Assembly (NCBI GenBank): GCA_903813345.2
Contig: CAIIXF020000006.1
Span: forward strand, 12,900,348-12,964,347
From: Owenia fusiformis
Lineage: Eukaryota; Annelida; Polychaeta; Sabellida; Oweniidae
Length of the DNA: 64,000 nucleotides
Reading direction: 5' to 3'
The position numbers and the translations under genes were made by a program. Position 1 is the first letter of the stretch. Each line of letters opens with the position of its first letter. Below the pieces are notes generated by a model that worked only from the letters and a program-made list of their open reading frames with translations, ran no database searches and was not told where the DNA came from. Of the stretch, positions 7,001 through 55,300 are shown one piece after another.

Positions 7001-10000
7001 GCCTGTCATGACCCTGGAAGTGTTATTGTGGAAGCCTGGCGCGACTGTAGCCTTTATTGTGGTTTATAAGCGAATGTGAATCTTAATGTATAGTAGTAAT
7101 TTTGTAATTTTGACATAGTTCAACACCATGATCATAGTATTAAACTGTTTAATTGTAATGACGATCACTTAAAATTGTTAAGGATATTCCTGGCATTAAT
7201 GTCATGCATATTTACTAGTCATTGCAATACATTATAACGGTCATAGTAGGACTAAGCCTAAATTTCAACATTACCACTCTCATACCTGAACTTGCAATAC
7301 TACAGTTGGGGACAAAAATAAATGACAGGTCGATTTTCGATCACCATTTCCTAATTATGGTGGTCTGAAAGCCCATAATTTCCAATATTGTCTAGATATA
7401 TATCCCTTAAAATTTGTATATTTTACATTTTATATAATCTCATCCACTGATGTATGGCCTCTTGTAAATTCTCTTATTTTTAACATGGGAAATCCTCACT
7501 TCAGCAAATCCACCTGTCATTTATTTATGTCCCCAACTGTATACTACATTGTCACGGTCATGCCAGGCCTTGCAGAACTATATAGCATTGTCAGGGTCAT
7601 GCCAGGCCTTGCAGTACTACAGTATATTACATTGTCACGGTCATGCCAGGCCTTGTAGTACTATATTACATTGTCACGGTCATGCCAAGCCTTTCAGAAC
7701 TATATTACATTGTCACGGTCATGCCAGGCCTTGCAGTACTATATTACATTGTCACGGTCATGCCAAGCCTTGCAGAACTATATTACATTGTCACGGTCAT
7801 GGCAGGCATTGCAATATAATACAGCATTGTCGCGGTTATACCAGGCTTTCAATATAACATTACCACGGTCATGGCAGGATCCTTGCGCTACTTAAAAAAC
7901 ACTGAATAACATGGTGACGGTTACGCCAGGCGTTAGTCTTGCAACAGATAGGGTCTCGTTCAAAGTTGGTCTGTCAGAGATTCAGAAATAAGGACCATGT
8001 CTTGATTTAAACCCACTATAAAATATTGATTTGAAATCTTGAGTGGTTCATATTTACATGTACTTGTTTTATTGTCCTCAATGTGTTTTATTGCCCTTAA
8101 TGTGTTTTATTGCCCTTTATTTGTTTTATTGCCCTTAATGTGTTTTATTGCCCTTAATGTGTTTTCCCTGGCTGAGAAAAATAAACACACAAATATAATT
8201 TTTTTGTTTTTTTTTGCTTTTCAATTACATAGCACTATATAGATTTTTAGAAATAGTACTGGGTAATAACAGGATGCAGCTGATAGGATGGAATTTGTCT
8301 CAAGAAATATTGAGATAAATGCTTAAACTTGAGTGGTGAAGTTGCCATAATCATAGTCAATAAATAATTTCAAAGGAGCCCAAATGATTAGTTATAACAA
8401 ACAACTTGTAATGTTTTGTGCCATAACAAAGCTGAAAGTATGTAAAGAAAAAAGTCTGAATGGTGTCACGTCACAACATGGGAGAAAATGTTGACAAAAG
8501 GAGACAATACAACTCCACTACTTCCCAGTTATCTAATTTCATTTCGTGTTATGTCCAAAATATGACTACGACTCATGATTTGTTTGGTGGGATTTGCTGT
8601 TCTGAGGAGTTGCTGTTTTTTATCACACCATCGGTGGGATATAGTCGTCATACTGGTCGTGATCGTGGTCGTGATCGTGGTCGTGATCGTGGTCGTGATC
8701 GTGGTCGTGGTCGTGATCGTCCCGCTTTTTGTCATCGCCGTTTAAGGAAAACTGCTCATCAGATTTTCTCCAAATTCGCAGAGATGATAGAGCATATGAA
8801 GTACTAGAGCTGATTAACTTTTGGGTGGCCATCTTGTTTTCTGGCGGCCATTTTGAAGGTTTTTCGAAAAATCTTGTCATCGCCATTTCAGGAAAACCGC
8901 TCATTGGATTTCCTTCAAATTTACACAAATGATAGAGGATATCAAGTACTAGAGCTGATTAACTTTTGGGTGGCCATCTTAATTTCTGGCAGCCATTTTG
9001 AAGATTTTTCGAAAAATCTTGTCATCGCCATTTAAGAAAATCCACTCATCGGATTTCCTTCAAATTTACACACATGATAGAGGATATCAAGTACTAGAGC
9101 TGATTAACTTTTGGGCGGCCATCTTGTTTTCTGGTGGCCATTTTGAAGGTTTTTCGAAAAATCTTGTCATCGCCATTTCAGGAAAATCGCTCATCGAATT
9201 TCCTTCAAATTTACACAAATGATAGAGGATATCAAGTACTAGAGCTGATTAACTTTTGGGCGGCCATCTTGTTTTCTGGTGGCCATTTTGAAGGTTTTTC
9301 GAAAAATCTTGTCATCACCATTTCAGGAAAACCGCTCATCTGATTTCCTTCAAATTTACACAAATGATAGAGGATATCAAGTACTAGAGCTGATTAACTT
9401 TTGGGTGGCCATCGTGTTTTCTTGTTCTTCAAATTTGTAAACATAATAGGAGAACAGTTTTCCTGGTTCATAGTGTCTGCCTATTTGATGGTGTGATCTC
9501 GTTCACGTCCTGTGCCTTGTTAGTTAAAATAACACAGGATTTGAAAAATGCACATTTTTACTGCTGTTAAGTCCGGTGTAGGTGTTAAGAAAACACTTAG
9601 CATACATAAAATTTAAATCAATGACATAACATAAACGTCTTACTTAGATTTAGATATTACTTCCTCATTATTCGTGAACTGTTATTAGTAGGTATTCCGA
9701 GAACCATAATGACATTATAGTTAAGCACAAATTAGGTGTGCTTAAGTAAGTACTCATTCAAGATATATGACTGAAAACTGTAAGTCAAGAAAACATGATA
9801 GTTTATTTTAGTATTTTTGAAATAAAATAGTTTTGTTGTGTGAAATAAAAATATGTAAACTGTAAAGGGTTTTCCAACCAAATAATTATATGAAGATGTT
9901 GTTGTTACAGTCTGGCAAATAAGGATTTTTTCACTATAGCCAAAGGAGGATTCTCGGTTTGGAGAACGAAGTTCATCAATCTAAATGAGCATTATCCCTG

Positions 10001-30324: not shown

Positions 30325-33225
30325 AAGCCACCACAAAAAAGTTGTAACATATTGTTATAGCCAATGTTTTGTGATTGGAGGTGTCTGGTACAATGTGTTA
30401 CATTTTGTTACCATTTGCAATAACTTTGTGGTGATATCTTGTCATGTTAAAGCCTTGTTGCATTGGTAATATGTTACATTTTCTAACCATTTGCAATAAC
30501 TTTGTGGTGACATCTTGTCATGTTAAAGTCTTGTTGCATTGGTACAATGTGTTGCATTTTGTAACCATTTGCAATAAATTTGTGGTGACATCTTGTCATG
30601 TTAAAGTCTTGTTGCATTGGTACAATGTGTTACATTTTGTAACCATTTGCAATAACTTTGTGGTGACATCTTGTCATGTTAAAGCCTTGTTGCATTGGTA
30701 TAATGTGTTACATTTTGAAACCATTTGCAATAACTTTGTGGTGACATCTTGTCATGTTAAAGTCTTGTTGCATTGGTACAATGTGTTGCATTTTGTAACC
30801 ATTTGCAATAAATTTGTGGTGATATTTTGTCATGGTAAAATCTTGTTGCATTGGTAAAATGTGTTGCATTTTTTAACCATTTGCAATAACTCAGTTACAT
30901 TTTGTTGTGTTAAAGCCTTGTTGCATTGGTACAATGTGTTGCATTTTTATGTCACCACCAAAAGTGGTGACATATTGTTATGGTCTCCATTTTTTTGCGA
31001 CGGCGGTTGGTGGTTGGCGTCCGGCGGTTGGCGTCCGGCGTCTGGCGTCCGGCGTCTGTAACAATTTCTTATAACTTCCTATAACTTAACAAATACTGTT
31101 TAGACTGACTTCAATTTTTTTCTAAATCATCTACATGTTCTCAGAAGTTCACAATCTGACTTAAGATTTGACATTTGACCTTCAATGACCTTCTCAAGGT
31201 CAAAAAGGTCTTTTTTCAACTTGCTTCACATTGACTAAATTTTTTTTCAAAATCATCTACATGTTCTCAGAAATTCAAATCTGACTTTAGATTTGACTTT
31301 AGATTTGACATTTGACCTTCAAATCTGACTTTAGATTTGACATTTGACCTTCAATGACCTTCTCAAGGTCAAAAAAGGTCTGTTTTCAACTTGCTTCAAA
31401 TTGACTAAAAAAAATTTTCAAAATCATCTACGTGTTCTCAGAAATTCAAATCTGACTTAAGATTTGACTTAAGATTTGACATTTGACCTTCAATGACATT
31501 CTCAAGGTCAAAAAAGGTCAAAAAGGTCTGTTTTCAACTTGCTTCAAATTGACTAAAAAAAATTTTCAAAATCATCTACGCGTTCTCAGAAATTCAAATC
31601 TGACTTTAGATTTGACTTAAGATTTGACATTTGACCTTCAATGACCTTCTCAAAGTCAAAAAAGGTCAAAAAGGTCTTTTTTCAACTTGCTTCAAATTGA
31701 CTAAATTTTTTTTTCAAAATCATCTACATGTTCTCAGAAATTCAAATCTGACTTTACATTTGACATTTGACCTTCAATGACCTTCTCAATGTCAAAAAAG
31801 GTCAAAAAGGTATTTTTTCATCTTGCTTCAAATTGACTAAAGATTTTTTTCAAAATCATCTACATGTTCTCAGAAATTCAAATATGACTTTAGATTTGAC
31901 ATTTGACCTTCAATGACCTTCTCAAGGTCAAAAAGGTCTTTTTTCAACTTGCTTCAAATTGACTAAAAAAAATTTTCAAAATCATCTACGTGTTCTCAGA
32001 AATTCAAATCTGACTTTAGATTTGACTTAAGATTTGACATTTGACCTTCAATGACCTTCTCAAAGTCAAAAAAGGTCAAAAAGGTCTTTTTTCAACTTGC
32101 TTCAAATTGACTAATTTTTTTTTTCAAAATCATCTACATATTCTCAGAAATTCAAATATGACTTTAGATTTGACATTTGACCTTCAATGACCTTCTCAAG
32201 GTCAAAAAGGTATTTTTTCAACTTGCTTCAAATTGACTAATTTTTTTTTTCAAAATCATCTATATGTTCTCAGAAATTCAAATCTGACTTTAGATTTGAC
32301 TTAAGATTTGACATTTGACCTTCAATGACCTTCTCAAAGTCAAAAAAGGTCAAAAAGGTCTGTTTTCAACTTGCTTCAAATTGACCAAATTTTTTTTCAA
32401 AATCTACATCTTTTCAGAAGTTCAAATTTGACTTTACAAGTTCTCAGAAGTTCAAATCTGACTTTAGATTTGACCTTGACCTTCAATGACCTTCTCAAGG
32501 TCAAAAGGGTCTTTTTTCAACTTGCTTCAAATTGACTAATTTTTTTTCAAAATCATCTACATGTTCTCAGAAGTTCAAATCTGACTTTAGATTTGACATT
32601 TGACCTTCAATGACCTTTTCAAGGTCAAAAAGGTCTTTTTTCAACTTGCTTCAAATTTACTTAATTTTTTTTCAAAATCATCTACATGTTCTCAGAAGTT
32701 CAAATCTGACTTTACATTTGACATTTGACCTTCAATGACCTTCTCAATGTCAAAAAAGTCAAAGAGGTATTTTTTCAACTTGCTTCAAATTGACGAATTT
32801 TTTTTTCAAAATCATCTACATGTTCTTAGAAGTTCAAATCTGACTTAAGATTTGTGTGCAACTAGTTTTAACTTGCTTCAGATTGAACAATTTCTTTTTT
32901 CAAAATCATCTACAAGATCCCAGAAGCTCAAATCTTCAAAAACCTTCTTAAGGTCAAAAGGTATTTTCCAACTTGCTTTAAATTGACCAAATTGTTTTAG
33001 GTGGTGACATTTTGTCATGTTAATGCCTTGTTTAACCTTTTGCAGTAACTTTATGGTGACATTTTGTCATACTAAAGTCTTGTGGCTTTGGTATAATGTG
33101 TTGCATTTTGTAACCATTTGCAATAACTAGATGACATTTTTTTGTATTAAAGCCTTATTGCATTGTGTTGCATTTTTAACCATTTGTGATAACAGTTAAA
33201 GCTTTGTTGCATTGAACTTTAGATA
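30325..33225 (+). repeat. 78-bp tandem array enclosing an AGGTCA minisatellite element, copy 2
   Basis: A degenerate head GCCACCACAAAAAAGTTGTA is followed by units with GTGGTGACATCTTGTCATGT, AAAGTCTTGTTGCATTGGTA and AACCATTTGCAATAAC, the GTGGTGA marker recurring near 30428, 30504, 30582, 30660, 30738 and 30816 (78-bp steps). At 30949-33010 lies an element starting ATGTCACCACCAAAAGTGGT and ending GTGGTGACATTTTGTCATGT. Its body (about 31060-32990) is a minisatellite of roughly 130-165 bp units. The 78-bp type sequence resumes after it. Confidence 0.85.
31060..32990 (+). repeat. Minisatellite with AGGTCA half-site clusters
   Basis: Each unit reads: TTCTCAGAAATTCAAATCTG, ACTTTAGATTTGACATTTGA, CCTTCAATGACCTTCTCAAG, GTCAAAAAAGGTCAAAAAGG, then TTTTCAACTTGCTTCAAATT and a T-run. 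About a dozen units are present, with variation in number of AGGTCA motifs and in the T/A run. A near-identical array is at 37980-39640. Confidence 0.88.
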
Positions 33226-36599: not shown

Positions 36600-39500
36600 C
36601 TCCTCGAACGATGTTCGGGTGGGATATAGGGAACGCATTCGTACGTCCGTCCGTCCGGGCAATAACTCAAATACTGTTGGCCCAATTTTGTTCATATTTT
36701 GTACACATATACCCAATGGGTAAAACCGATTTTCAAAATGGCCGCTCTAAAAATGGCGGCCATTTTAGTGCCGATTTTACAGGTATTTAGGTACTGCATA
36801 TAAAACTGTAATAGCGATATGTTTTAAATGTAAAAATTTATAAAGGACATTGATTAAGCTAGGAATGTAAATATAGAAGAAATACATGGCAGCCATCTTG
36901 AAAAATGGCTGCCTTTGCACGTCATTTAATAAATTTTTGCTTTAACTTGAATAGTGGAGTGATTTTGTTCATATTTGGTATGTGAATACTATAAACATTG
37001 CACACTGTCTAAAGACACTTTTAGTAGAAGGCGGCCATTTTGAAAAATGACTGCCATTTTTACGTGTGTTAATCTAACATTTTTTACTGTAACTCAAAAA
37101 GTAGTGGAGCGATTTTGTTCATATTTGGTATGTGAATATTTTAAGCATGGCACAATGTCTAATGACATTTTGAGTAGTAGGCGGCCATTTTGAAAAATGA
37201 CTGCCATTTTTATGTGTGTTAATCTAACATTTTTTACTGTAACTCAAAAAGTAGAGGAGCGATTTTGTTCAAATTTGGTATATTGAATACTTTAAGCATG
37301 GCACAATGTCTAATGACATTTTGGGTAGTAGGCGGCCATTTTGAAAAATGGCCACCATTTTTACGTGTGTTATTTAACATTTTTTACTGTAACTCGAAAA
37401 GTAGTGGAGCGATTTTGTTCATATTTGGTATGTGAATACTTTAAGGATGGCACAATGTCTAATGACATTTTGGGTCGTAGGAGGGCATTTTCAAAAATGG
37501 TCGCCATTTTTACAAGTGTTATTTTACATTTTTTACTATACCTCAAAAAGTAGTAGAGCGATTTGCTCATATTTTATATGTGAATACTGTAAGCATGGCA
37601 CACTGTCTCATGACACTTTGGGTAGTAGGCGGCCATTTTTACTATAACTGGAAAAGTAGTGGAGCGATTTTGTTCATATTTGATATGTGAATACTTTAAG
37701 CATGGCACATTGTCAAATAAAACTTTGGGGAGTAGTTGGCCATTTTGAAAAATGGCCACCATTTACAAGTACATGTGTGCGAAAATTTTTTATAGGTGGC
37801 TACTTAAAAGCATATTATTATTATGTCACCACCAAAAGTGGTGACATATTGTTATGGTCTCCGTTTTTTTGCGACGGCGGTTGGCGGTTGGTGGTTCAGG
37901 TGTCCGGCGGTTGGCGTCCGGCGGTTGGCGTCTGTAACAATTTCTTACAACTTCCTATAACTTAACAAATACTGTTTAGACTGACTTCAATTTTTTTCTA
38001 AATCATCTACATGTTCTCAGAAGTTCAAATCTGACTTCAGATTTGACATTTGACCTTCAATGACCTTCTCAAGGTCAAAAAGGTCTTTTTTCAACTTGCT
38101 TCACATTGACTAAATTTTTTTTCAAAATCATCTACATGTTCTCAGAAATTCAAATTTGACTTTAGATTTGACATTTGACCTTCAAATCTGACTTTAGATT
38201 TGACATTTGACCTTCAATGACCTTCTCAAGGTCAAAAAAGGTCAAAAAGGTCTGTTTTCAACTTGCTTCAAATTGACTTAATTTTTTTTTCAAAATCATC
38301 TACTTGTTCTCAGAAATTCAAATCTGACTTAAGATTTGACTTAAGATTTGACATTTGACCTTCAATGACCTTCTCAAGGTCAAAAAAAGGTCAAAAAGGT
38401 CTGTTTTCAACTTGCTTCAAATTGACTAAAAAAAATTTTCAAAATCATCTACGTGTTCTCAGAAATTCAAATCTGACTTTAGATTTGACTTAAGATGTGA
38501 CATTTGACCTTCAATGACCTTCTCAAAGTCAAAAAAGGTCAAAAAGGTCTTTTTTCAACTTGCTTCAAATTGACTAATTTTTTTTTCAAAATCATCTACA
38601 TGTTCTCAGAAATTCAAATCTGACTTTAGATTTGACATTTGACCTTCAATGACCTTCTCAATGTCAAAAAAGGTCAAAAAGGTATTTTTTCATCTCGCTT
38701 CAAATTGACTAAATTTTTTTTCAAAATCATCTACATGTTCTCAGAAATTCAAATATGACTTTTGATTTGACATTTGACCTTCAATGACCTTCTCAAGGTC
38801 AAAAAAGGTCAAAAAGGTCTTTTTTCAACTTGCTTCAAATTGACTAATTTTTTTTTTCAAAATCATCTACATGTTCTCAGAAATTCAAATCTGACTTTAG
38901 ATTTGACATTTGACCTTTAATGACCTTCTCAAGGTCAAAAAAGGTCTGTTTTCAACTTGCTTCAAATTGACTAAAAAAAATTTCAAAATCATCTACGTGT
39001 TCTCAGAAATTCAAATCTGACTTTAGATTTGACTTAAGATTTGACATTTGACCTTCAATGACCTTCTCAAAGTCAAAAAAGGTCAAAAAGGTCTTTTTTC
39101 AACTTGCTTCAAATTGACTAAATTTTTTTTTCAAAATCATCTACATGTTCTCAGAAATTCAAATCTGACTTTAGATTTGACATTTGACCTTCAATGACCT
39201 TCTCAATGTCAAAAAAGGTCAAAAAGGTATTTTTTCATCTTGCTTCAAATTGACTAAATTTTTTTTCAAAATCATCTACATGTTCTCAGAAATTCAAATA
39301 TGACTTTAGATTTGACTTTAGATTTGACTTTTGACCTTCAATGACCTTCTCAAGGTCAAAAAAGGTCAAAAAGGTCTTTTTTCAACTTGCTTCAAATTGA
39401 CTAATTTTTTTTTTCAAAATCATCTACATGTTCTCAGAAATTCAAATCTGACTTTTGATTTGACATTTGACCTTTAATGACCTTCTCAAGGTCAAAAAAG

Positions 39501-39842
39501 GTCAAAAAGGTCTGTTTTCAACTTGCTTCAAATTGACCAAATTTTTTTTTCAAAATCATCTACATCTTTTCAGAAGTTCAAATTTGACTTTACAAGTTCT
39601 CAGAAATTCAAATCTGACTTAATTTTGAACTCATAATATTGTGAGCAACTAGGTGGTGACATTTTGTCATGTTAATGCCTTGTTTCTTCTTATGACAGCT
39701 TGGCTAGTGAGCAACCATTTTGAAAATGGTGGCCTTTCTTATGTGTGTTGTTTTCTGATATTTGCTAAATATTTCGTTTGTAAAAATGCCAGCCATTCTG
39801 TTCGATGGGATTCGCTATGCTTTGGCGTTGCCGTTGTTCTGG
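36600..39842 (+). mobile_element. (GTCC)n / 'cggccattttg' element, copy 2, split by an insertion
   Basis: It starts CTCCTCGAACGATGTTCGGG + TGGGATATAGGGAACGC, followed by a short GTCC run, AACTCAAATACTGTTGGCCC, and about six units of 140-150 bp with GTAGTGGAGCGATTTTGTTC and GTAGGCGGCCATTTTGAAAA. At about 37821 a GTCACCAC element interrupts it; it resumes at about 39684 (TTCTTCTTATGACAGCTTGG) and ends like copy 1 with TTCGATGGGATTCGCTATGC. Confidence 0.82.
37823..39662. mobile_element. GTCACCAC element with AGGTCA minisatellite, copy 3
   Basis: It begins ATGTCACCACCAAAAGTGGT + GACATATTGTTATGGTCTCC and a G-rich GGCGGTTGGCGTCCGG stretch, then carries the minisatellite (about 37980-39640), and ends GTGGTGACATTTTGTCATGT. 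Comparison with the uninterrupted copy at 15700-15735 places the insertion between GCATATTATT and TTCTTCT.ATGAC. The ends ATGTCACCAC / GTGGTGACAT are inverted. Confidence 0.82.
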
Positions 39843-40378: not shown

Positions 40379-43300
40379 CTAAAAGGTTTTTGGTGAATTG
40401 ATGAATTTATCCACAGGGGACACTCTTAGACTGAGGCTAGGGTCAGGTCTCATTGTTATTCTCTGCTTTCTTTTGTATGTATATACAGGGTCTAAGGCTA
40501 ATTGAAACTCTCGAACAACCATGGCTAGGATAAGTTTCATTTGAGCCATAGCAAATTTATGTCCAATACACATCCTGGGTCCCAGCAGAAAGGGAATGAA
40601 ATTGTTTGGATTAGTGGCATTGGTTTCATTCATGAATCTGTCAGGGTTGAACTTGAGAGGATCATCGAATGAGTCCTGTTGCCTGGAAACAAGAATAATA
40701 GTCTATATCAATGCAACGAATATTTGATCTAGCTAATACATATTAATGTTTTAACATGTGAGTCTCTACTTTAAAGTTAACTTGAGAATATATGCTACAA
40801 ACCTCATCATAACTCCAGGACAAAGCAAAATAATTGTTCCCGCTGGTATGAAATAGCCACATATGACATCATCATTCACAGCCTGTCGCAATGTCAGAGG
40901 CACTGGAGGAAGTAGTCTATATCAAGGAAGAAATGTAAAATTAATCATTCTGGAATGTGCATTGTGAATTCACATCAAAATGGACCAATATGTACAATTT
41001 TAATTCTTTAACCGCTCTAAAATCTGTTGAAACCAGAGAATTTTTCATTTATGCCACCTCTTGACATTTTACCACATATCTTTAGCGCATCATACCTATA
41101 GAACTTTAGATGCTCAACTTAATAAAATAAAATTAGACGGCAGAGAGAGAGATCATTTTTACACATTTTAAAACAATTTTTGTGTAAATTGGATGAAAAT
41201 TGTTCAAATAAGATCAATTTTAGTGAAACATTTTGTGACGGATTTTCTCGTCACTTGGTATCAAGGTCATTTCTGGGGTGACGTGAAATCTCCTCACTCA
41301 AGGTAGTCAAGAGGTTAAAACAAAATACACCATCATACTAATTTGTTACCTCAGTGTTTCTTTGATAACTGCATGTGTATACTTGAGCTTGTCTAAATCA
41401 TCCCAACTGATGGGGGTGCCATCTTTAGGCAGAATTTCTTGAACTTCTTGGCGGACTTTCTGTTGACATTCTGGATGATTTGCCATTTGTAGGAGAATCC
41501 AGGATAGACCTATGCTGGTTGTCTGGAAAGTTTATGAAGTTGTTAAGTTCTTAACTTGAGTTCATGGCATGAATGAGAAAGAAAATAAAAGGGCAGAGAA
41601 GGAAGTTCTAGTCTATATAAGTGTGACCTTGTCTAAGTTCAAGGTCATTCATTTCAATCATGCTCTTACCTCATGACCTGCAAGGAGAAATGTCATGACC
41701 TGGTCTTTAAGTTCAAGGTCACTCAAGCCTTTTCCAGTCTCCTCATCTCTTGCTAACACCAGCTTATCTAATAGGTCATGTGTCAGCTTTTCTTCTTGAA
41801 TACAAATTAAGATAACTTTATTAGTTATTTCTAGCTTTTGTCAAAAGTTTGGCCTCTGGTGATCTACAATTTCTTACTGCATCATTGAATAACTGATTTA
41901 TTTTTATGAAAAATATCCTCTGAAAAAATGAAGCTGAAGAAAGCAGTTTAATAGGGTAAGCCTTGGGAATTTTTGCACTAAAATATGTCATTTAGCCATT
42001 CAGAAAAATGTATTCAAACATGACCGTGCTCTATTCGAATTTCTCAACCAATCCGAATGCAGCATAGCCAATATAGAACGTTCTCTAATTCTCCATAGAT
42101 GCACGACCATGCTCTGTTCAATCTGCAATTTGCATTGTTTTGAGTGACGTCACATCTCAGCTGCACATCTGGGGCTCTGTCCGGGGATAGCCGTTCTTTT
42201 TTACTCCCTATTTATTTTTATTTTATCAACACCCCATGTTTGCATACACCGTATAAAATCTAAAACGGGGAGTAAAATAGAACAGCCCAAACAAATTCTA
42301 AAATTTTTCAGGCCGACTTCAGAATCTTGACAGCATGCGTATTCTTCCTTCATGCCCGTTCCATAGACACGGCTTTTACTAATTTTTATGTTTGAATCGG
42401 AATAAATAATGATAGGCCATTCAATATGGTGAAATTCAGCACTCGTTGGACAGAATGTTAGTACAAATGCACTCACCTTCGGTTCGTGCTTTGTACAACA
42501 TTCTGTCCAACTCGTGCTGAATTTCACCATATTGAATGGCCTATCATTATTTATTCCTTAAATATTAGAAACCACATAGCTCTGACCCCCCCCCCACCGA
42601 TGAAACATATTATTTGGGGGAGCTTACCTTCCTGTTCCAGTTGAGCCTTCTTCTGGTTGATAACTTTAAACACTGTTTTCTGGACCATAGCAGAGTCTGC
42701 ATTCATCTTTCTAACATCCTCAAATGGCAACTTGTCCCAGAACGGCAGCATCATCTTCCAGCTGAATTTAAAAATTAATTCCATCAAACATCCATTCGTC
42801 TGGAGAACTATCATACTATATGAATTAATTTTGCTGAAGAGTGTTCCAGTTTTAACCATTAGTAGACGGTTAACTCCCCCCCCCTCCCATCATAGATGGG
42901 GGACTTGAGAAAGAGGAATGAAAAATGAATGCAAGGCCATCTTTTTATCTGAATACTGAATTTCATAGTTACTTTTACTATGGTTTGAAGCCTTCAGTGG
43001 CCAAAATGTATCAACTTGAAAAAATTTACGCCAAAAAAATCCCATTGGCAATCCAGTATATATTCACCTTAGGCCTACCACAGACATCATTCTCTGGAAT
43101 GAGTGTGTTGTTCCACTTTCATCATCTGTCTTCTTTAGAGATGATTCTAGTGCATTGAACTTGTAGCCAAAGGCACACTGGCCTATTGCATCTAATGACT
43201 ACAAAATAAAAGATGTTAATCATATCTGCTCATATCTGCAACGTTGGCATAAATTTAATTAAAGCAGGTTAATGCTTAAATCTAAAGGCTATCTCTAAAA

Positions 43301-46300
43301 TACACCAAAGGACTAGTATTACATGTATTAAGATGGCAAGAGATTTTGGACAGCTGTATTTTTGGTCATGGGTATTTCCCGACCATACAATGAACATTTT
43401 ATATTAAAACAATATCTTGACTTCAACAAAAGAACATGAAAAAAATAAAAATCTCTTTTAATAATGAGATTAGCCAGGGATTAGTTACTCACCTCCTCAC
43501 TTTTTCAATAATGTTGACCTTATATTGAAGAAGAGGACCGTGATTTTCAAAGTTTCTGTGCAAAATTAGATTGCAACATTAGTTATCAGTAATCTCATAT
43601 ATAGGAAAATTGGATTGAATTCCTAGTTTCTTTTAAGAATTTTGGGCTCTCCAAGAAATACTGAGATAATTGCTATGTGATGTTTATAATATATTCAACA
43701 CAAATAGATGGCAACACAGTGTCATAATATCTGGTGTTATATTTGGAACTCATGTTTTGTACTCAAAGTGTCAGCTACTGAATGCAGTTTATTCACACAG
43801 GATTATATTGTATTGTGACTTGCAAACACTTGAGTAGTATTATATCCAACAGCATTTATAAAGAAGGTATAAGAAAATGTTTGAAGTATACATGCTGATA
43901 AAAGTCATGCTCATAGTAATTTGAGTAATGGCTGATGTTTGAATGTATTTTTTTTTCTCCAGCACTTCGCATTGCCTTGACATTATATCCTTTATGTAAC
44001 CCAATCCCAAAAGAGGGGTGTATAAATTCAAGAATCTGGCAAACTTCATTACACTTTCATTTGGTTGGGATATACCGAGGTTTTTATTACTCCAGTCTTA
44101 TTCTATATACTAGTAATTATATAAATATGGTGAGGTAGAATTGCTAATTATAAATTCCATTCAAAATGGGTTAGTACAAAACATGGCACAGTGTCATGGC
44201 ACAGGTACACACTATGGCATAGGCTACGGCACCCCCTATGTCATACTGTAGGCACTTAAACACTATTTCGAGTCAAATTCTTGCATATTTATGTAGATTA
44301 TGATTACCCTTACAAATGTCTACCCTTCCAAACATTGTTCTTGAGCCTCTTACTAAAGTTATATTATATTATCTTTCTTGGCATAGTTTGCCATGACTGA
44401 ACATTTGTTAATCTGAATCAAGTTACAGACGTATGTAGTACGTACTCAAGGACCCATTCTCTCTTTGCCAAAACAAAACTTTAGTAAGAGGATCAAGAAC
44501 AAAAATAATCAAAATAAATCTGAATTAGTATTCAAGAGCCAATGACACAGGGGTGCCATAGAGTATGCCATGGCTTAGTGCCATGTTTTGTACTAATCCC
44601 ATTTTATAAGCTTTTTCTATTTTTATTTTCTAATCAAAATACGGGTGTTTGTGATTCATTTCTGTAAATGTTAAGAATATAAATTGAAACGATACACAAT
44701 TAGATGAAACGGTGTAAGAGGCGAAGATACAGGGCGAGCCAATAAAGGTAACCAAAAAATGTTTGCTAATAACTCAGTCATTCAGCATGGGTTTAATATC
44801 ATATTTGGCACAATTAAACCTTGTTCAATTTCAGTTCATTATACATTTAATTCTCAATTATATTGATGCAGTTAAAAGTTACATAGGTCAATGCTTTGCG
44901 CAATGTGCATTACAGGCTAGCGTTTTGAAATGAATATAGATCAAATTAATTAACTCATTGAGTGAGTTATACTTACAAATGTCCCAACTGGTTGCCTACA
45001 CTCAATGGTGAAAAGTAAATCAGAATAAATTGGGTTAAAACCTTGGTCAATGTTCTTTCGTTCTACTAAGTGTCATTGGTCTATCTAAAGTAGTCACGAT
45101 TTTATGGTTATTTACAAAAACATGGTCAAAATGCCTCTGTGAGACTTTAGTAAGTGTATATATTTGCCAGTGGAGTCTCAGTACTACAAAATCTGACTGA
45201 GTCTTGAAAACTTCAATAGGACAACAGAATCACATACTCGTAAATTCCAATGGGTCATTTTATTTTTCATTGGTATCTAATGAGACTCAATTGAACTTTC
45301 CCCAGAGTAGCTCTTGTGGTATTACAATGTGAGAGTAACTCATGCGGTATTGCAATGTCAGAGTAGCTCTTGTGATATTACAATGTAGAGAAATTCATGT
45401 GGTATTGCAATGCCAGAGTAACAAATGTGGTATTGTATTGTCAGAATAGCACATGTGGTATTGTCAGATTGAAAAATTGTGGAACATTTACCAAAATCAT
45501 TTTCATAATCCATCCCCCTTTCATACATTTTCACATTCATACATAGCTTTTCTGTACATCAGTTTTTCATAGGTCCAGTATAAGTCAGTCAATGTTATTA
45601 TATTCATGCCTCATTGGATACTCTGGTATTGAATTAAATCCCCTCACATAAATAATGGATTATATTGGTTTCCCATGACCTAGCAAACTGTCATGCATTC
45701 ATAAGCTGTCAAAACATACACTCATTTACAAATGTTCCTTCATTAATGCATCGATTTTCTCAAAGATGGCAGATGGGTAAACAGAACTTTCAAAGATGGA
45801 CAGGGCGAACTCCATAACATGGGATATTCCATTGGATAATCCTCATTCCCATGTAACTTTCATATTAACTTTTCAATCCATATGCCCTTATATGAAGTGA
45901 ATGCTACCTTACAGTGTAATCTTATATTGCAAAAAAATATGAAAAATCATGGTCATCTTTTTCAGTAATAAGGTCAATATTATTGAAGGTGGCTTACTAA
46001 TCCATGGCTAATCTCATTATTAAAATGAGATATTTATTTTTTTCATGCACATTTGTTGAAGTCAAGATATTGTTTTAATATGAAATGTTCATTGTATGGT
46101 CGGGAAATACCCGTGACCAAAAATACAGCTGTCCAAAATCTCTTGCCATCTTAATACTTGTCCTTTTAATAATTTGAAAAGCTCTCCAAAATACCCCGAA
46201 TTTTAAAAATTTGTAAAAGCTTGCAATTTGCAATATTGGAATATTATGAGTAATACGTAAATGTGTGATAACTTGAAAAATACTCAATAGTGAATGTTAA

Positions 46301-49300
46301 ATGTCTTTTTGAACAGATGATGGGCAAAGTACGGAAACCAATGTATCATATTCCCGTGAGATCAATACACGTAGGTCTCGATCCGAGGGCCACCTGACCC
46401 ACCCCTAAAAGCCATATTCCTTGTGCCCACCAAAAAAAATGTGTAATTTAAAAATTGCAAACTATCAAATCCCTATAAATCACATCAAGTGCAGTGGCGT
46501 AGCTACGTGTACGCCAAGTACGCCCAGGCGTACTCTCAAATTTTAAGGAAAAATAAAATTTACCTGATTAATTGTGATGAAAAATAAACATCCCAGCAAC
46601 TCTTATTGACACTATTCAACAGACCCCCCAGCCTCTTTACCCCGATGTCTACACGTCTTTAGTCCAGCTGCTAACATTGCCAGTATCCACTTGCGTGGCT
46701 GAACGAAGCTTTAGCAGTTTGAAACGCATTAAGTCATACTTACGTTCCACAATGAACGAGGAAGGACTTTCTTCCTTGGCCATGATACATACCCATAGGG
46801 AACAGGATATAAACATTGATACTGTTATTGACATGTTCGCAAATGCAAAAAACAGAAAGATAGAATTTATTCTATAGAATCACGTACAGATTGTTAAGAT
46901 CCGAAATGGAGTTGAGACGGTCGTGTAACTTTTCTTTTATTGTTAATCATCTTGTGAGCTAGATAAAAACACAGTTTTAGGTAGCCTAAAAAATAAAATC
47001 GCCATGATAGACGGCTTCGATCGCCGATGTCATGATTATATAGAATCTGTCTATTTTGTTTCCCGAATATTATCTGTTAATACAGTTAATTCAATCCCTT
47101 TAAAAAGCTATGTCAAAATGATCAAACCATACATATTTCCTTCATTGAATTAAGAGTGTTTAGTGTGTCCCCTATCTTCTGAAGACCCGGGATCTTCCTA
47201 TTTTATGGAACCATCGTTTTGTTAATTTTGATAAAACCGGGAAATCATACGGGCGTACACTCGCAAAATGGGCTAGCTACGCCTGTGAAGTGTGACCTTA
47301 CCATTGATAAGAGATCAGAGCAAACCTCCATGTCCGCATAATTACTGTCACCATGAAGTTTCTCATAGCGGGATTGCCAAAGTTCTGTCAGTACTCGGGG
47401 TGGAAGGTGTGAGAATTGTGCAAAAAATGACTTTGTGAGCTGGATGGAGTTTCTCTGTAGTTTTCATTCTATTAGGGTTTCCTGCATAAGGGATTTCGCC
47501 TGCGAAGCATATAACTCTTGCGAACATATCTAAATATTGGTCCGAAGAAGACATACCTTGAATTTTTTAGAAAAAAATTGGCTAAAAATGGAAACTACAA
47601 AAAGTCAAAATGTTCAACTCAAACAAAACTATAGCTATTTAATATTAACACTATGTATTACTTAATGTTTTTCAGATGTTTAAGGACCTTCATTAGTTTA
47701 CTAGTGTCTAGAAATAAGATAATTAAGGACAAAATTTGGCATTTTTGATCATTTTCGCTTTCAGCAGTAACATATAGTTCCTTATATCTTGAGTTTAATG
47801 TTGACTGGTTGCTGCAATTTTGATCAAATCTGTTCTTGTACATGTCTTCTTCCATTTAAGATGCAAAAAATGTATATTGGACCACCAATGGTCATATTAG
47901 AGCTTTCAGATCTCCCCTACCCCATTTATTATGAAAAATTACTGAAACATATGAAAATGGAAAATAACTTGAATTTATAAACTTTAACAATGTTGTAGCT
48001 ATTCCATATCAATATTATGTATTATTTAATGTTTTTCAGATATTTCAGAATCTTTATTGGTATACTAGTGCCTAGAAATGAGACATTTAAGGACAAAACT
48101 TGGCATTTTTTAAAATCATTTTAGCTTTCAGCAGTAACATATAGTTCCTCATATATTGAGTTTAATGCTGACTGGTTGTTGCAATTTTAATCAAATCTGT
48201 TCTTGTGCATGTCTTCTTCCATTTAAGGTATAGAAAATGTATAGTGGACCACCAATGGTCATATTAGAGCTTTCAGATCTCCCCTACCCCATTTATAATG
48301 AAAAATTATAAGAAAAATATGAAAATATAAAATAACTTAAAACTATAAACTTTAGTAAAGTTGTAGCTATTCTATATCAATATTATGTGTTATTTAATCT
48401 TTTTAAGATATTTCAGAACCTTTATTGGTAAACTAGTGCCTAGAAATGAGACATTTAAGGACAAAACATGGCTTTTTTACCATTTTCACTTTCAGCAATA
48501 ACATATAGGTCCTTATATCTTGAGTTTAATGCTGACTGGTTGGTGCATTCTTAGTCAAATTTGTTCTTGGAGATGTCTTCTTTCATTTAAGATATAAAAA
48601 AATGTATAGTGGATGACCAATGTTCATAGTAGAGCTTTCAGATCTCCCCTACCCCATTCATTAGGAAAAATGACTGGAAAATATTAATAAAAAGTAAAAT
48701 AACTTCAAATTATGAACTTTCACAAAGTTGTACCTATTCTGTCAAAACTATGTATTATTTAATCTTTTTCTGATGTTTCAGGACCCTCATTAGTATTCTA
48801 ATGCCTAGAAATGAGATATTTAAGGTAGTGGTGTCAATTAACCGCTTGAGCATTAACCGGTTAACCGGGGGTTTTTACCGGTTAAAGTCGGTTAACCGGC
48901 GGGAAATTTGAACTGATAATTTCAAATGAAATCTTCATCTTCGATCTTGAAAGTTGAAAAAAATTGGAAAAAAGATATATCGGCGTTTATTTTTACGTTC
49001 GTCAAGCTTTACTCTATTCTATGTAAGTAAGCGCGGAAAAGCAATGTGGCAGGGATTAAAGTTGCTGATTGGATATTTGTAAGGAATTATCGGACCTATC
49101 ACATGTATGAGTAGCTCACATGAAACTGACGCTTGAAAAACAAACAGATTAAAATGCAAAGTAAGCGCGGGAAAGCAATGTGGCAGGGATTAAAGTTGCT
49201 GATTGGATGTTTGTAAGGATGGGACTTATGACATGTATGAGTAGCTTACGTGAAACTGACACCATAAAACCAAACGCATTAGCATGCAAAATAAGCGCGG

Positions 49301-52300
49301 GAAATAAGAGAATTAATTATTATACACGGTCAACTAACCGCCCATAAAAACATAGACCGGTCAAGGCATTATCGGCGGTTAACCGGTTAACCGGTTAATA
49401 CTTGACACCTCTAATTTAAGGACAAAACTTGGTTTTTTTTCATTTTCGCTTTCAGCAATAATGTATAGGTCCCTATATATTGAGTTTTATGCTGACTGGT
49501 TGGTGCATTCTTGGTCAGATCTGTTCTTGTACATGTCTTCTTCCATTTAGGATATAAAAAATGTATATTGGACAACCAATGTTGATATTAGAGCTTTCAT
49601 GTCTCCCCTGCCCCATTTATAATGTAAATGAAAAAGTAATTTCAAATCATATACTTTAACAAAATTGTAGCTAATATTCTTCTGTAGGGTCTACTTTTCT
49701 TGTGACAGATTTACAATTACAGTTTGCTATTCTTGTTGGGTTTCTTTAAAGTTTTTAATCACCCTTCCCTATGGCATTTGTGCTTATATACTCTATCAAT
49801 ACTATGTATTATTTAATGTTACCTTCATTTAGATTACATGTGTCTAAAATTTGGCATTTTTAGCATTCTGCATTCAGCAGTAGCATATAATTTTCCACAA
49901 TTATAATTCTTTGATGATAGATTCATATATGTTTTTTATTGAATCTGTCTTCTTTGATTTAAGTTAAAGAAATTGTATGTAAGACAGCGAATGTTTTTAT
50001 TAGAGGTCTAAGATCTGCCCTCCACCATTTAATAAGAAAACCAACAAAAATGTTATTATTATTGCATGTTAATATTCTTAAACTTTTCAAAAGTTTAGCA
50101 CATTTATTAGCACACTAAAAGAGATAAAATTACTACACTACCATATTTTTAAAAGATTACTCAAAAATAGAATAGTGCAAAATAATTTTGTAATTTCACA
50201 GTTTACTCTCATACGAATCGAAGGATTAAACATGATTGTTCACAACTCTCGATCTTAATCTAGCAACAGCCTGATCTTTCAAATCTCCCCGGTTCTATGT
50301 TAGAGCTGCATTTAAGTCATTTTAAAGGTCTAAGTTGCTCATGACACCACAAGGTATTTATTCAGATATGTAAGATCTCTAAATGATTTTTATAGTTCTG
50401 AGAAACTCATCCTAAAATATTGTCCAACGATGTGCACTCTGTTGTTTATTGCCACATGGAAAAGTAGCAATACACCCTTGCCTTTTGCCATTTTACATTT
50501 GCGAATTGCCAAGGACATATGTTTTTTTGTGTTGCTACGAAGGTTTGTTCGTGGTACAAGACACCCATCTTTGATATATCTTCAAATAGGTATTGCACTT
50601 TGAGATTCATATAGTAATTTAGAATGCTACCTTGAAGGACATAAGAAACTTTAAGAGCTCTTTTTTTACTCTCATCCTTTGCAAGCAACATTCTGTATCA
50701 TCAGACTGAATACAAATTCTCTCAACATTGAATTCCTTTGTCTTGTCTGCAGCACTGTTATAGACATGGGTATAAGGAGAGTGTCAACTTCTTCATTACA
50801 CAATGTTTGCATTTACCAAAATATCCCCAAGCCCAATATCCATCATGAACTTCCTAATTACACCACCCTTAGGTGTAATATGGAAATCACCAAGCCTTTG
50901 ACAACATTGCAATTGATATGAGGGAATTCAACCAATATGGCTTGATCACTGGTTATAATTATCACACTACTATACCCCATTACATTTAAATATATTCCAA
51001 GTGTTCTACTATACATTGCATAGATTCATGAGCAGTTTGCAACGTATTATTACCAGAAAGCCCAAATAGACAAAGATAGAGAATACCCGCCCCATTTGCA
51101 ACTCAACTTTAAATGTCAAATTTTCAGACTTGTATTCTCATGAAGTTCCTGAAACATCTGAAAAATATCAAATGATACATAGTATTGATCTAGAATAGCG
51201 ACAACTTTGTTAAAGTCTATACTTTGAAATTGTTTGGTTTTTATATTTCTGGTTATTTTTTCAAAATAAATGGGGTAGGGGAGATATGTAAGCTCTAACA
51301 TAATGTCACTGTCAGGCTGTCCAATATACGTGTTTATATACCTTAAATCAAAGTAGGGAGGCAAAAGAACAGATTTGTTCAAGAATCCATCAACAAATCA
51401 GCATTAAACTCAAGATAAAAGGAAATACAGTAATGTTATTGCTTAAAGTGGAAATGATGAAAAATTGATGAAAAATGCCAAATTTTGTTCTTAAATGTCT
51501 AATTTCTAGACACTAGTATACTAATGAAGGTCCTGAAACATTAATTATACCATTCAATAGCACATAAAGAATGGCTACATCTTTGTTAAAGTTTATACTG
51601 GTAATTTGAAGTTATTTTTATATTTTCCGGTCATCTTCCCTAATAAATGGGGTAGGGGAGATCTGAAAGCTCCAATATGAACATTGTTTGTCCACTATAC
51701 ATTATCAATACCTTAAATGGAAGAAGACATGTACAAGAACAGATTTAATCAAAAATGCATCAACCAGTCAGCATAAAACTCAAGATATAAGGATTTATAT
51801 GTTATTGCTGAAAGCAGCATTTATTAAAAAATGCCAAGTTTTGTCCTTAAATGTCTCATTTCTAGCCACTTGAATACCAATAAAGGTTCTTAAAAATCTT
51901 ATAAACATTAAATAACACATAATATTGATATAGAACAGCTACAACCTTATTAAAGTTTATAATTATAAGTTATTTTACATTTTCATATTTCTCGTTTATT
52001 TTCCATAATAGATGGGGTAGGGGATATCTGAAAGCTCTAATATGAGCATTGTTCGTCCACTATACATTTTGTATACCTTAAATGGAAGAAGACATGCACA
52101 AGAACAGATTTGATTGAAAATGAAACAATAAGACAGCATAAAACTCAAGATATGAGGAACTATATATTACTGCTGAAAGTGAAAATGATAAAAAAAAATG
52201 CAAAGTTTTGTCCTTAAATGTCTCATTTCTAGCCACTTGTATACAGATAAAGGTTCTGAAATATCTTAAAAACATTAAATAACACATATTATTATATCAC

Positions 52301-55300
52301 TGTCATATTCTTCACTCTCTTATTGGCCCATGTCCTACACGTGACTAAAAATAACTAGCGATATTCAACGGAAGTCACGTGACTTCCGGTGAATATCAAA
52401 TGATTTTCAACGGCCATGACTTATACAATTTGGTAGTTGATATTTATTGTCTTTATTGTTATATTGTTAGAAGAAATATAAATGTATTTCAATGTTAACA
52501 TATGACTTAGTTAGTTATAGAAGATGTTATGACAGTGATATAATAAAACAAATATTTAATTCTATTTTCGGTGAATACCTGTGACACTTTCTCAAGATGA
52601 TATTCCACTAGCCCTTCGTGCTTCGTGGAATATCACTTGTGAAAGATGCACAGGTATTCACCTCAGTAGAATTAAATATTTGTATAATATTGATATAGAA
52701 TAGCTACAACTTTGTTAAAGTTTATAATGTCAAGTTATTTTATTTTTTCATATTTTGGGGTAATTTTGCATAATAAATGGGGTAGGGGAGATCTGAACGC
52801 TCTCATATGAACATGGTTGTCCACTATACATTTTCTATACCTTAAATGGAAGAACACATGTACAAGCACACATTTAATCAAAATTGCAACAACCAGTCAG
52901 CATTGAACTCAAGATATAAGGAACTATATGTTAATGCTGAAAGCGAAAATGGTAAAAAAGCCATGTTTTGTCCTTAAATGTCTCATTTCTAGACACAAGT
53001 ACACTAATGAAGGTCCTGAAACATCTGAGAAACCTTACATAACACATAATATTGATATAGAATAGCTACAACTTTGTTTGAGTTGAACATTTTGACTTTT
53101 TGTAGTTTCCATTTTTAGCCAATTCTTTTCGAAAATATTCATGGTATGTCTTCTTCGGACCAGTATTTAGATATGTTCGCAAGAGTTATATGCTTCGCAG
53201 GCGAAATCCCTTATGCAGGACACCCTAATAGAATAAAAAATACACAGAAATTCCATCCAGCTCAAAAAGTCATTTTTTCCTTAACGGAGCCTCTTAGAAA
53301 AGTTTCCACCCCGAGTAAGCTGCTTTCCACATGATTCAAACACAGGAAGCATTTCTAGAAATATGCACAGTAAAAGTGATAAATATCACGCTTTTTAAGA
53401 AAATGTTTAAGAGATCAATTTTCAAGAAAGTAAAGCAATGTCTGAAAGGGACTTGAACCAATTTTAGATATTCAAATACACATTTGTGTCATCCTAAATT
53501 TGATTACGTTATTAAATAAATGGAGAGGTTAAGCTTTGCATATATAATCGAAACTGAACCTGTACGTATCACTCGACCATATACAAATTCATGTAGCCTT
53601 CTCATATAAATAGCCGTTCAAATCCAGTGTTTGTTTAGACTACACCATAGCGTGTAATGATTCTATAGTATGTCAGTGATGCGGTTTTATAGCTGGTTTT
53701 CTAATACATATTTTAAACGAGCTCGTTTCGTAAGATTTTTGGCGCTAAATCATGCATGAGATACATCATCGTGTTCAGCAAGAATTCAACTGTGCATCGA
53801 AATCAAAATTGATAGCATAGTGTTCAATAGACACGAACAAAATGGTTCCCGTTGACCCAACGTCAAATTTCAAAATCTCCCGTTCTAAACCCGAAACTGT
53901 GAAGCTGAAAGAGTATCTGAAGTAGACTAAGCGCGCATAAAACTATGAGCGCTCGATACATTCCTTTGTTAATTTTTGTACTTTGCGTTCACGGTTACGT
54001 TGTGAAAAACATCGTTAGCTTAACCTCTCCAATATTCATGTTACGGACTTTACTGAAGACTTAAAAAATATGGAATATAGCTCTCAACCACTCCGTTATT
54101 TTACACCTATGGTGTCTCAATTAATTCATACTCACTCTTGATAGACTGCGTATTAAAGGCAGGGTTGATTAACTTGCTCTGTGCTCTGTGTTCCGCACCA
54201 TCAGATAACAAAAGGCCATTCCCTACAAACTTCTTAAGTGCCCTAAACAATTGAATGACACGGTTTAAGTATGTGAAGTAATGCTGAGTGATGTCACAGC
54301 AGTAAACCATAAGACTGTCAACTAATAGATCCTACATGTAGGTTCAATTCTCACATGGGGTATTGCATTTGGGACAACTTAGTTTCTGTCATCTTACTTG
54401 TTTCACTACAATAGATAGTAAACTTTTTTCATTTTAGTCATTTCCCATAAAGGCACTTGTAGGTCATGACATAACATTTCAAAGGATTTAGGGCTTTTCT
54501 TTCATTTTAATATGTATTTCGAGTACACAGGGTTGTTTTTCAGAAATTATTATATGTTAAACAGATAATTAACTTGTAAACCCTTACTTCATTCTGCCAG
54601 GAGGCTTGATGTAATTCTTGCTATTGTTCACCATGATGTGCTTAAGACCATCAGGGTGAGCCACCATCAATCTTTCTGTCCCAAAGAAAAAGTAATAGCG
54701 CACTATAGGACCATACTTCTCCACCCACCTGTTAAAGCATGGAAGAAATTTAAAACTTATGACATTCAGTCTCTTTTCCCAAAATAGGCACTACAAGAAC
54801 TATTTCATCCGAAATTATTTTATTCAAATATTCAAGAAACTCACTTTGAACTTGACTCCATGGCCTGCCCTCTCATCACATCTAGCATGTTGCCAATGAA
54901 GGGATTCCATGGTAAGCCTGGCACCTGTTCATAGGGGTTCATATTCTATTAATATGGAAATATAAACAGGCCCTTAGCCAGAGAGGAGGGGTTGGGGTTT
55001 TTGAAGTAAACCTTAGCAACAGCTGGCTACAGGCCTGAATAAGGTATGGACGTTGGAGATATAGAGATATAGGGTGAAAACCCTGAATAAGAATATGAAC
55101 ATAAAAGATTTTAAATATAATGAGGGGTAAAAAAAACTTAAGGACTAAATATATGTACATGCATCACAAGATCATAATTTGAATATGAAAGATAGCTAGC
55201 TGTTTGTATATAAAACATTATCCTATGCCCAGTAAAGTTTTAGGGAGATAAGTTGCTGAGATATATCCCGTTTCCTGATTTTGAGGTTTCCAGATCCATA

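What the first reader, a model, noticed from the sequence alone, without database searches (positions are those of the whole stretch)
47385..53309. A P450 intron that is almost exactly one inverted-repeat element (introner-like)
Intron 5 of the P450 gene (53309 down to 47385, 5925 nt) nearly coincides with a TA-bounded 5922-bp element. On the gene strand the donor GT is inside the element's terminal repeat (CTCGG|GGTGGAA region) and the acceptor CAG lies 7 bp beyond the other end. No GT exists between the last exon codons and the element, so the donor must come from the element. Splicing this way keeps frame and P450 spacing (GKQLTR-E-LWQSRYEK). Deleting the element plus one TA leaves a +1 frame, so it is not a neutral exon insertion. 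An element supplying its own splice site is what introners do; this one is much longer than most described.
Basis: partly seen in the sequence, partly recalled or inferred. Interest (0 to 1): 0.85.

Follow-up and report, generated by a model that had tools for sequence, protein, structure and literature searches.

The report
Young transposon splitting a P450 exon
A jumping DNA element of about 5.9 kb landed very recently inside a protein-coding exon of a cytochrome P450 gene, and its own ends could let the cell cut it out of the RNA as a brand-new intron, but that cutting has not been shown.

Summary
The element is 5926 bp (47392-53317). Its TAs are part of the terminal inverted repeat TACTCGGGGTGGAA, not a target duplication; the duplication is CT. 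A neighbouring tandem P450 copy carries the empty site: removing the element plus one CT restores its uninterrupted 125-nt exon, in frame. So the element split a coding exon after the genes duplicated; that copy shows no older intron there. If donor 53309 and acceptor 47385 are used, the frame survives with one extra Arg, which breaks spacing kept by the paralogue and CYP4B1. The insertion is very young: the closest copy examined differs at 38 of 5310 sites. The gene's intactness therefore says nothing about splicing. The donor scores lowest of the gene's 10. The family has about 105-114 copies, normally with 3-bp AT-rich duplications (62 of 64 sampled), and shows no bias towards coding sequence, so a dedicated introner family is unlikely. 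Best reading: a chance, nascent intron candidate, or simply a disrupted allele. Rivals are exon skipping and hairpin-guided "SOS splicing". RNA evidence is decisive and was not available.

The parts
47392..53317 (.). Non-autonomous terminal-inverted-repeat DNA element, 5926 bp, inserted in a P450 coding exon
   Evidence: Ends TACTCGGGGTGGAA / TTCCACCCCGAGTA; about 105-114 relatives genome-wide; empty site in paralogue
47390..47391 (.). Target duplication copy (AG on +, CT on gene strand)
   Evidence: Comparison with empty site in L001
53318..53319 (.). Target duplication copy (AG on +, CT on gene strand)
   Evidence: Comparison with empty site in L001
47392..47405 (+). Terminal inverted repeat; on the gene strand its end reads TTCCACCCCGAGTA (pyrimidine-rich, possible element-own GAG acceptor ending at 47394)
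53304..53317 (-). Terminal inverted repeat carrying the candidate donor GGG|GTGGAA
53308..53309 (-). Candidate 5' splice site GT inside the inverted repeat
   Evidence: PWM -1.15, the lowest of the gene's 10 donors; U1 duplex -5.8 kcal/mol
47385..47387 (-). Candidate 3' splice site CAG in host exon sequence, 7 nt past the element
   Evidence: Sequence; same CTGACAG is exonic in the paralogue
53310..53354 (-). Upstream part of the split P450 exon: 37 nt of host sequence (53318-53354) plus 8 nt of element (53310-53317) if the donor is used
47302..47384 (-). Downstream part of the split P450 exon
40379..54924 (-). P450 gene body found here (11 predicted exons, with the split exon counted as two; any exon upstream of 54924 not determined)
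   Evidence: Open frame of 478 codons plus stop; CYP4B1 match E=7.5e-55
48826..49413 (.). hAT-like MITE nested in the element, 8-bp duplication ATTTAAGG
   Evidence: Sequence; absent from the closest copy L092

Best explanation
A non-autonomous DNA transposon with long inverted-repeat arms and no detected coding capacity inserted very recently into a coding exon of one of two tandem P450 genes, leaving a CT duplication. Shown: the insertion, its boundaries, the empty site, its youth and the intact frame. Inferred: part of the transcripts loses the element as an ordinary GT-AG intron. The donor (GGG|GTGGAA) comes from the element's inverted repeat. The pyrimidine-rich run TTCCACCCC and probably the branch point also come from the element. 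The CAG acceptor is former exon sequence of the host. The product has one extra Arg in the segment (helix D, by recall) that leads to the conserved Trp. This would be a lucky nascent intron, probably still polymorphic and inefficient, not the work of a specialised introner family.
For: The paralogue exon at C6:12980326-12980450 is uninterrupted, and removing the element plus one CT gives the same exon with 4 of 125 differences and no gap. The spliced frame is open to the normal stop across the predicted exons. Of the GT/GC sites scanned from the start of the split exon for 450 nt, five donor/acceptor combinations (three donors) keep the whole frame, and 53309 scores best among those donors. 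The closest copy examined differs at 38 of 5310 aligned sites, while the two P450 genes have dS 0.045, so the insertion followed the duplication. A long intron is nothing unusual here: another in this gene (47301-43199) is 4.1 kb.
Against: The donor is the lowest of the gene's 10 by PWM (-1.15; the others 0.68 to 7.0), although its U1 duplex energy is not the worst (PWM and U1 letters recalled). The donor and the pyrimidine tract are perfect complements and would pair in the arm hairpin (347 inter-arm pairs in the outer 400 nt against a mean of 66.8 in 20 shuffles). Frame retention has about a one-in-three prior. The extra residue breaks spacing that the paralogue and CYP4B1 share. The insertion is too young for gene intactness to mean anything. 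No transcript was seen.
Confidence: 0.45

Rival explanations
1. Plain insertional disruption: the element is not removed productively and this allele is null or nearly so, with the tandem paralogue covering the function.
For: Weak donor; hairpin over both sites; the insertion is so young (38 of 5310 differences) that an intact frame is expected even in a dead gene; the paralogue, whose matching exon lies about 27 kb away, is open over the 8 exons assembled, and its two earlier exons align without gaps.
Against: The in-frame GT-AG option exists and the gene shows no other lesion in the exons found, which is weak evidence either way.
Confidence: 0.27
2. Exon skipping: the strong donor of the previous exon (AGA|GTGAGT at 54135) is joined to the CAG acceptor at 47385, removing the 45-nt stub with the element and giving a P450 with 15 residues fewer than the spliced form (14 fewer than the paralogue), still in frame.
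For: The skip keeps the frame to the normal stop; that donor has a U1 duplex of -8.4 against -5.8 for the stub's donor, and PWM 2.4 against -1.15; the stub is only 45 nt.
Against: No transcript; it would delete much of a conserved P450 segment (helix D, by recall), so the product is probably inactive.
Confidence: 0.14
3. SOS splicing: the long inverted arms fold into a hairpin in the mRNA, the element is cut out independently of GT-AG sites and RTCB rejoins the ends, as described for DNA transposons in animal mRNAs.
For: Arms pair over most of their outer 400 nt; a CAAP1-family match is present in this genome (35.8 bits over positions 3-37 of 63; Pfam cut-off 25). The pathway is described in PMC13247085 (passages), which cites Zhao et al., Nature 2026; that paper is not held. 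The roles of inverted-repeat pairing and of CAAP1 are recalled.
Against: No RNA evidence. The element (5.9 kb) is much longer than the Tc1-type insertions I recall as its substrates.
Confidence: 0.1
4. A true introner family: copies systematically create introns when they enter exons.
For: The sampled copies carry a GGG|GTGG-like donor on one strand and a pyrimidine-rich run plus AG on the other at both ends (40 copies printed; end patterns).
Against: 64 sampled copies show no excess of open frames across the insertion point, no GC rise (40 copies) and AT-rich 3-bp targets (62 of 64). 10 of 24 junction ORFs of the first 40 copies were scanned with Pfam; nine gave nothing at E up to 0.1 and one a single match at E=0.05 below its cut-off. 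Element-own sites plus a 3-bp duplication leave 13 nt, a frameshift.
Confidence: 0.03

Closest known systems
Introners with target duplications and inverted repeats (Gozashti et al. 2022, PMC9860276; abstract and whole Results and Discussion section read)
   Same: DNA-transposon-like insertion into an exon, with one splice site from the element and the other from the target (their Chrysochromulina case: 5' site carried, 3' site co-opted). Their Aureococcus case adds 12 bp in frame; so would this element if its own GAG acceptor were used.
   Different: [quoted passage not shown] here 5.9 kb, no sign of bias to coding sequence, one known exonic case and no splicing data.
Exonic Ds and dSpm (CACTA) insertions of maize, and Tc1 insertions of C. 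elegans, spliced from pre-mRNA (recalled; the paper of Purugganan and Wessler not read)
   Same: A single transposon insertion in an exon, partly rescued because cryptic splice sites in or near the inverted repeats remove it.
   Different: There splicing was shown by RNA; here it is predicted only. Different element family.
CACTA elements, for example soybean TgmR* (13 kb, PMC4219821; passages read)
   Same: 3-bp target duplication, subterminal direct and inverted repeats, many kb long, and RNA-Seq showed accurate, though reduced, splicing of the intron holding it.
   Different: Ends are TACTC, not CACTA; no transposase found; TgmR* lies in a pre-existing intron, not an exon.
Newly gained introns of Daphnia populations (PMC4202315; passages read)
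   Same: Recently gained introns in an animal, known by comparison with intron-free alleles; in a handful the inserted segment and the fragment removed by splicing differ in length.
   Different: In the passages seen they are mainly linked to repair of double-strand breaks, not to a DNA transposon, and splicing was checked against RNA.

Membership tests
Introner | Element inserted into a coding exon that lacked an intron | tested here: met
   Empty, uninterrupted exon in the tandem paralogue
Introner | Element (or target duplication) supplies at least one splice site | tested here: inconclusive
   A GT in the inverted repeat and an AG in the target give an in-frame join, but use is not shown
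Introner | Element is spliced from transcripts | not testable with these tools
   No RNA data available
Introner | Many family members form introns / family enriched in genes | tested here: not met
   64 other copies: junction ORFs 48.1 codons against 51.6 at 252 control positions, p=0.44; GC not raised in 40 copies; the test is insensitive to short exons, and introns were not tested by RNA
Cut-and-paste DNA transposon with terminal inverted repeats | Terminal inverted repeats | tested here: met
   14 nt perfect, then about 610 nt at 89% further in
Cut-and-paste DNA transposon with terminal inverted repeats | Constant-length target duplication | tested here: met
   62 of 64 copies have exactly 3 bp, 87% A+T; the window copy has 2 bp
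Cut-and-paste DNA transposon with terminal inverted repeats | Related autonomous copy with transposase | tested here: inconclusive
   The four longest of the 42 paired copies examined: one with long ORFs resembling a retroelement, one with a nested TTAA-flanked Mutator-like element (PF20700), one internally repetitive, one with an unidentified 4.3-kb stretch; no partner transposase recognised
CACTA / EnSpm | CACTA-type ends | tested here: not met
   Ends are TACTCGGGG
PIF/Harbinger | TWA target (recalled) | tested here: not met
   8 of 62 duplications fit TWA (TAA 4, TTA 4); ATA 12, AAT 8 and ATT 7 are commonest
SOS splicing substrate | DNA transposon in mRNA with pairing inverted repeats | tested here: inconclusive
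   Arms pair strongly in silico; a CAAP1-family match is present; no RNA

The most novel reading that the evidence does not exclude
An animal intron caught at birth: a 5.9-kb inverted-repeat DNA transposon, 0.7% diverged from the nearest copy examined and with about 0.3% private changes, became a frame-preserving intron in a P450 exon on arrival, with the intron-free ancestor still present as a tandem paralogue. Its two splice regions are each other's complement, so excision could be helped by, or compete with, hairpin-guided SOS splicing.
Probability: 0.4. Interest if true: 0.62.

Novelty: new member of a known kind. Interest (0 to 1): 0.42.

Why it matters
Intron gain is rarely seen with the intron-free state, the inserted element and its siblings all in one genome. 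Here each is present, and the insertion is so recent that it may still be polymorphic. If transcripts prove spliced, it is a clean, datable animal case in which a long transposon, not a short introner, makes an intron, and a direct test of spliceosomal against SOS excision. If not, it is an ordinary gene-breaking insertion with a spare copy of the gene beside it.

Tried and rejected
TA as the target duplication: rejected, because 62 of 64 copies have a 3-bp duplication outside TACTC...GAGTA.

An old intron later filled by the element: rejected for this gene, because the paralogue has a continuous exon and the pre-insertion site has no room for an intron. No orthologue from another species could be examined. 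The searches listed no other P450 of this genome that matches this exon (one search scored 105 of 205 candidates).

Intactness or dN/dS as evidence of splicing: dN/dS between the two genes is 0.46 (11 synonymous, 19 non-synonymous changes in 394 compared codons, from the third predicted exon on, with the added codon left out), but the insertion is far younger than the duplication, so this does not bear on the allele after insertion.

A frame-restoring 1-nt deletion: the 2-bp duplication is rare (one other of 64, plus one copy with none), and a loss of G from a 3-bp CTG duplication would have repaired the frame. But a GCT duplication that lost G inside the intron, or an original 2-bp duplication, explains it equally well; not claimed.

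Autonomous partner: the 543-aa transposase ORF in L086 is inside a nested TTAA-flanked insertion; the 560- and 1170-aa ORFs in L082 lie in a stretch not shared with the window element and look by eye like a non-LTR retroelement (not run against a database). Eight ORF translations from the window were scanned with Pfam at E up to 0.1; none of the seven that lie in the element matched (one of these is inside the nested MITE).

Second haplotype: none found among contigs (one search lists only the window pieces and the paralogue; 3 of 3 candidates scored).

Private changes: one search gave 11 of 4676 for the window copy, but that alignment included the untrimmed L094; without it, one search gives 15 of 4781.

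Organism: 498 Mb with twelve large contigs fits Owenia fusiformis (505.8 Mb, 12 chromosomes; PMC9977687, passages). This is inference only.

Literature: searches surfaced no description of this element in their listings; subscription journals are mostly not held. 'Annelid' has no occurrence in the main text of PMC9860276.

Dropped rows: one search listed 100 of 208 ends; one search paired 42 other copies from them; 40 had flanks fetched and the other two came (L095, L096). From (also capped lists) I paired copies on the later contigs by eye and fetched the first 20 in contig order. The 64 are these 40 and 20 plus L092, L093, L095 and L096; L094 was left out because its second end was not found. 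The end of the script (a GC repeat) crashed, so GC rests on the 40 copies. Of 24 junction ORFs (first 40 copies) 10 were sent to Pfam, one of them cut to 120 aa; the 13 new ones were not. In one search the anchors for the paralogue's first two exons failed; one search found both by alignment, without gaps.
Full report
What is there. The window lies in a 498-Mb genome (C6:12900348-12964347). On its minus strand a P450 gene runs from at least 54924 to 40379. Eleven predicted exons give an open frame of 478 codons that ends in the usual haem-binding region and a stop; the best solved relative is CYP4B1, E=7.5e-55. Between 53310 and 47384 the coding sequence is interrupted by an element of 5926 bp, 47392-53317, with ends TACTCGGGGTGGAA and TTCCACCCCGAGTA.

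Empty site. A tandem paralogue exon at C6:12980326-12980450, outside the window, matches the same exon without a break. On the gene strand it reads ...GGAAAGCAGCTGACAGAACTTTGG; the window reads ...GGAAAGCAGCT[element]CTGACAGAACTTTGG. Taking out the element and one CT gives a 125-nt exon that differs from the paralogue's at 4 positions with no gap and reads through in frame. The TAs are thus part of the inverted repeat, the target duplication is CT, and the event is a simple insertion into a coding exon.

The family. The 14-nt end occurs 105 times forward and 103 reverse, against 0 for the reversed control. Thirty-nucleotide versions of the two ends give 114 (up to 2 mismatches) and 105 (up to 1 mismatch) places. 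The 42 other copies paired from the first 100 listed ends run from 446 to 11,646 bp; 32 of them are 4.9-6.6 kb. The window element has inverted arms of about 610 nt at 89% further in, and arrays of roughly 365-nt units on both sides. No coding capacity was found in it: none of the seven element translations scanned gave a Pfam match at E up to 0.1. Of 64 other copies with both flanks, 62 have an exact 3-bp duplication, 87% A+T; one has 2 bp and one none. The window copy, with 2 bp in a GC-rich site, is thus unusual. The four longest of the 42 copies were examined: one holds long ORFs that resemble a non-LTR retroelement, one a TTAA-flanked Mutator-like insertion, one is internally repetitive, and one has a 4.3-kb stretch I could not name. 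No partner transposase was recognised.

Age. The closest copy examined, on C8 (L092), differs at 38 of 5310 aligned sites and lacks the hAT-like MITE nested in the window copy. In an alignment of seven copies, 15 of 4781 sites are private to the window copy. The two P450 genes differ more (dS 0.045, dN 0.021 over 394 compared codons). The insertion therefore followed the duplication by a long way and may still be polymorphic. For the same reason the gene's intact frame cannot be used as evidence that it is spliced.

Could it be spliced? Joined to the host CAG at 47385 it adds one codon (LTELW becomes LTRELW); joined to the element's own GAG ending at 47394 it adds four. It is the lowest of the gene's 10 donors by a recalled position matrix (-1.15; others 0.68 to 7.0), while its calculated U1 pairing (-5.8) is stronger than that of two predicted donors of the gene (-5.0, -5.7). 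The acceptor side has TTCTCACACCTTCCACCCC ahead of the AGs. A further in-frame option skips the 45-nt stub, using the strong donor at 54135. The two arms pair almost throughout (347 inter-arm pairs in the outer 400 nt; mean of 20 shuffles 66.8), and the donor region pairs with the pyrimidine tract. That could hinder the spliceosome or favour SOS splicing, a recently described removal of DNA transposons from animal mRNAs with RTCB ligation (PMC13247085, passages). A CAAP1-family match, recalled as a factor of that pathway, is present. No RNA was available, so none of these routes is shown.

Is it an introner? As described (PMC9860276, abstract and Results and Discussion read), introners are transposon-like families whose members repeatedly become introns, with median family lengths of 30-654 nt and enrichment in genes in most genomes that hold them. 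The logic here, donor carried and acceptor co-opted, matches one of their classes, but the family does not behave so. Open frames across the joined flanks of 64 copies are no longer than at 252 control positions (48.1 against 51.6 codons, p=0.44), GC is not raised at insertion points (40 copies), targets are AT-rich, and a normal 3-bp duplication would leave 13 nt when the element's own sites are used. The junction test misses short exons, and only 10 of the 24 longer junction ORFs from the first 40 copies were scanned with Pfam, so a few further exonic copies could exist.

Verdict. A real, very young transposon insertion in a coding exon with its empty site alongside: about 0.97 likely as stated. 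That it is removed as a GT-AG intron in at least part of the transcripts: about 0.45. That the family is a dedicated introner: about 0.03. The case is worth one RNA-seq look, and it is ordinary if that look finds no junction.

Noticed in passing
48818-49421: hAT-like MITE (48826-49413, ends TAGTGGTGTCAA/TTGACACCTCTA) with 8-bp duplication ATTTAAGG nested in the element; absent from the closest copy (L092), so probably inserted after the two copies parted.
   Followed up: yes
L086 (C4:10396985-10406564), about 7418-9046: Open frame of 543 aa with a Mutator-like transposase domain (PF20700, E=5e-10) inside a TTAA-flanked nested insertion; looks like a Kolobok-like element (name recalled).
   Followed up: partly
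L082 (C5:42180987-42190900), about 3648-8840: Two long open frames (560 and 1170 aa) that look by eye like a non-LTR retroelement, in a stretch of a family copy that the window element lacks.
   Followed up: no
46581-46874 (+): hAT dimerisation domain fragment (PF05699, E=2e-9) in the next P450 intron.
   Followed up: partly
31480-32740 and 38220-39640: Two arrays of a roughly 135-bp repeat that translate to similar peptides ([24 protein letters not shown]...), probably satellite DNA.
   Followed up: no
L094 (C4:24380800-24387600): Family copy next to or interrupted by a long tandem array of a 97-bp unit (25 units counted, some 104 bp); its second end was not found.
   Followed up: partly
C1:11196456-11201867 (L004, L005, L097): The only other sampled copy with a 2-bp duplication (TG); same length (5412 bp) as the copy 0.88 Mb away, from which it differs by 2.8%.
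   Followed up: partly
C8:10895620-10902245 (L125, L126): The only one of 64 sampled copies with neither a 3-bp nor a 2-bp duplication; possibly a rearranged copy.
   Followed up: no
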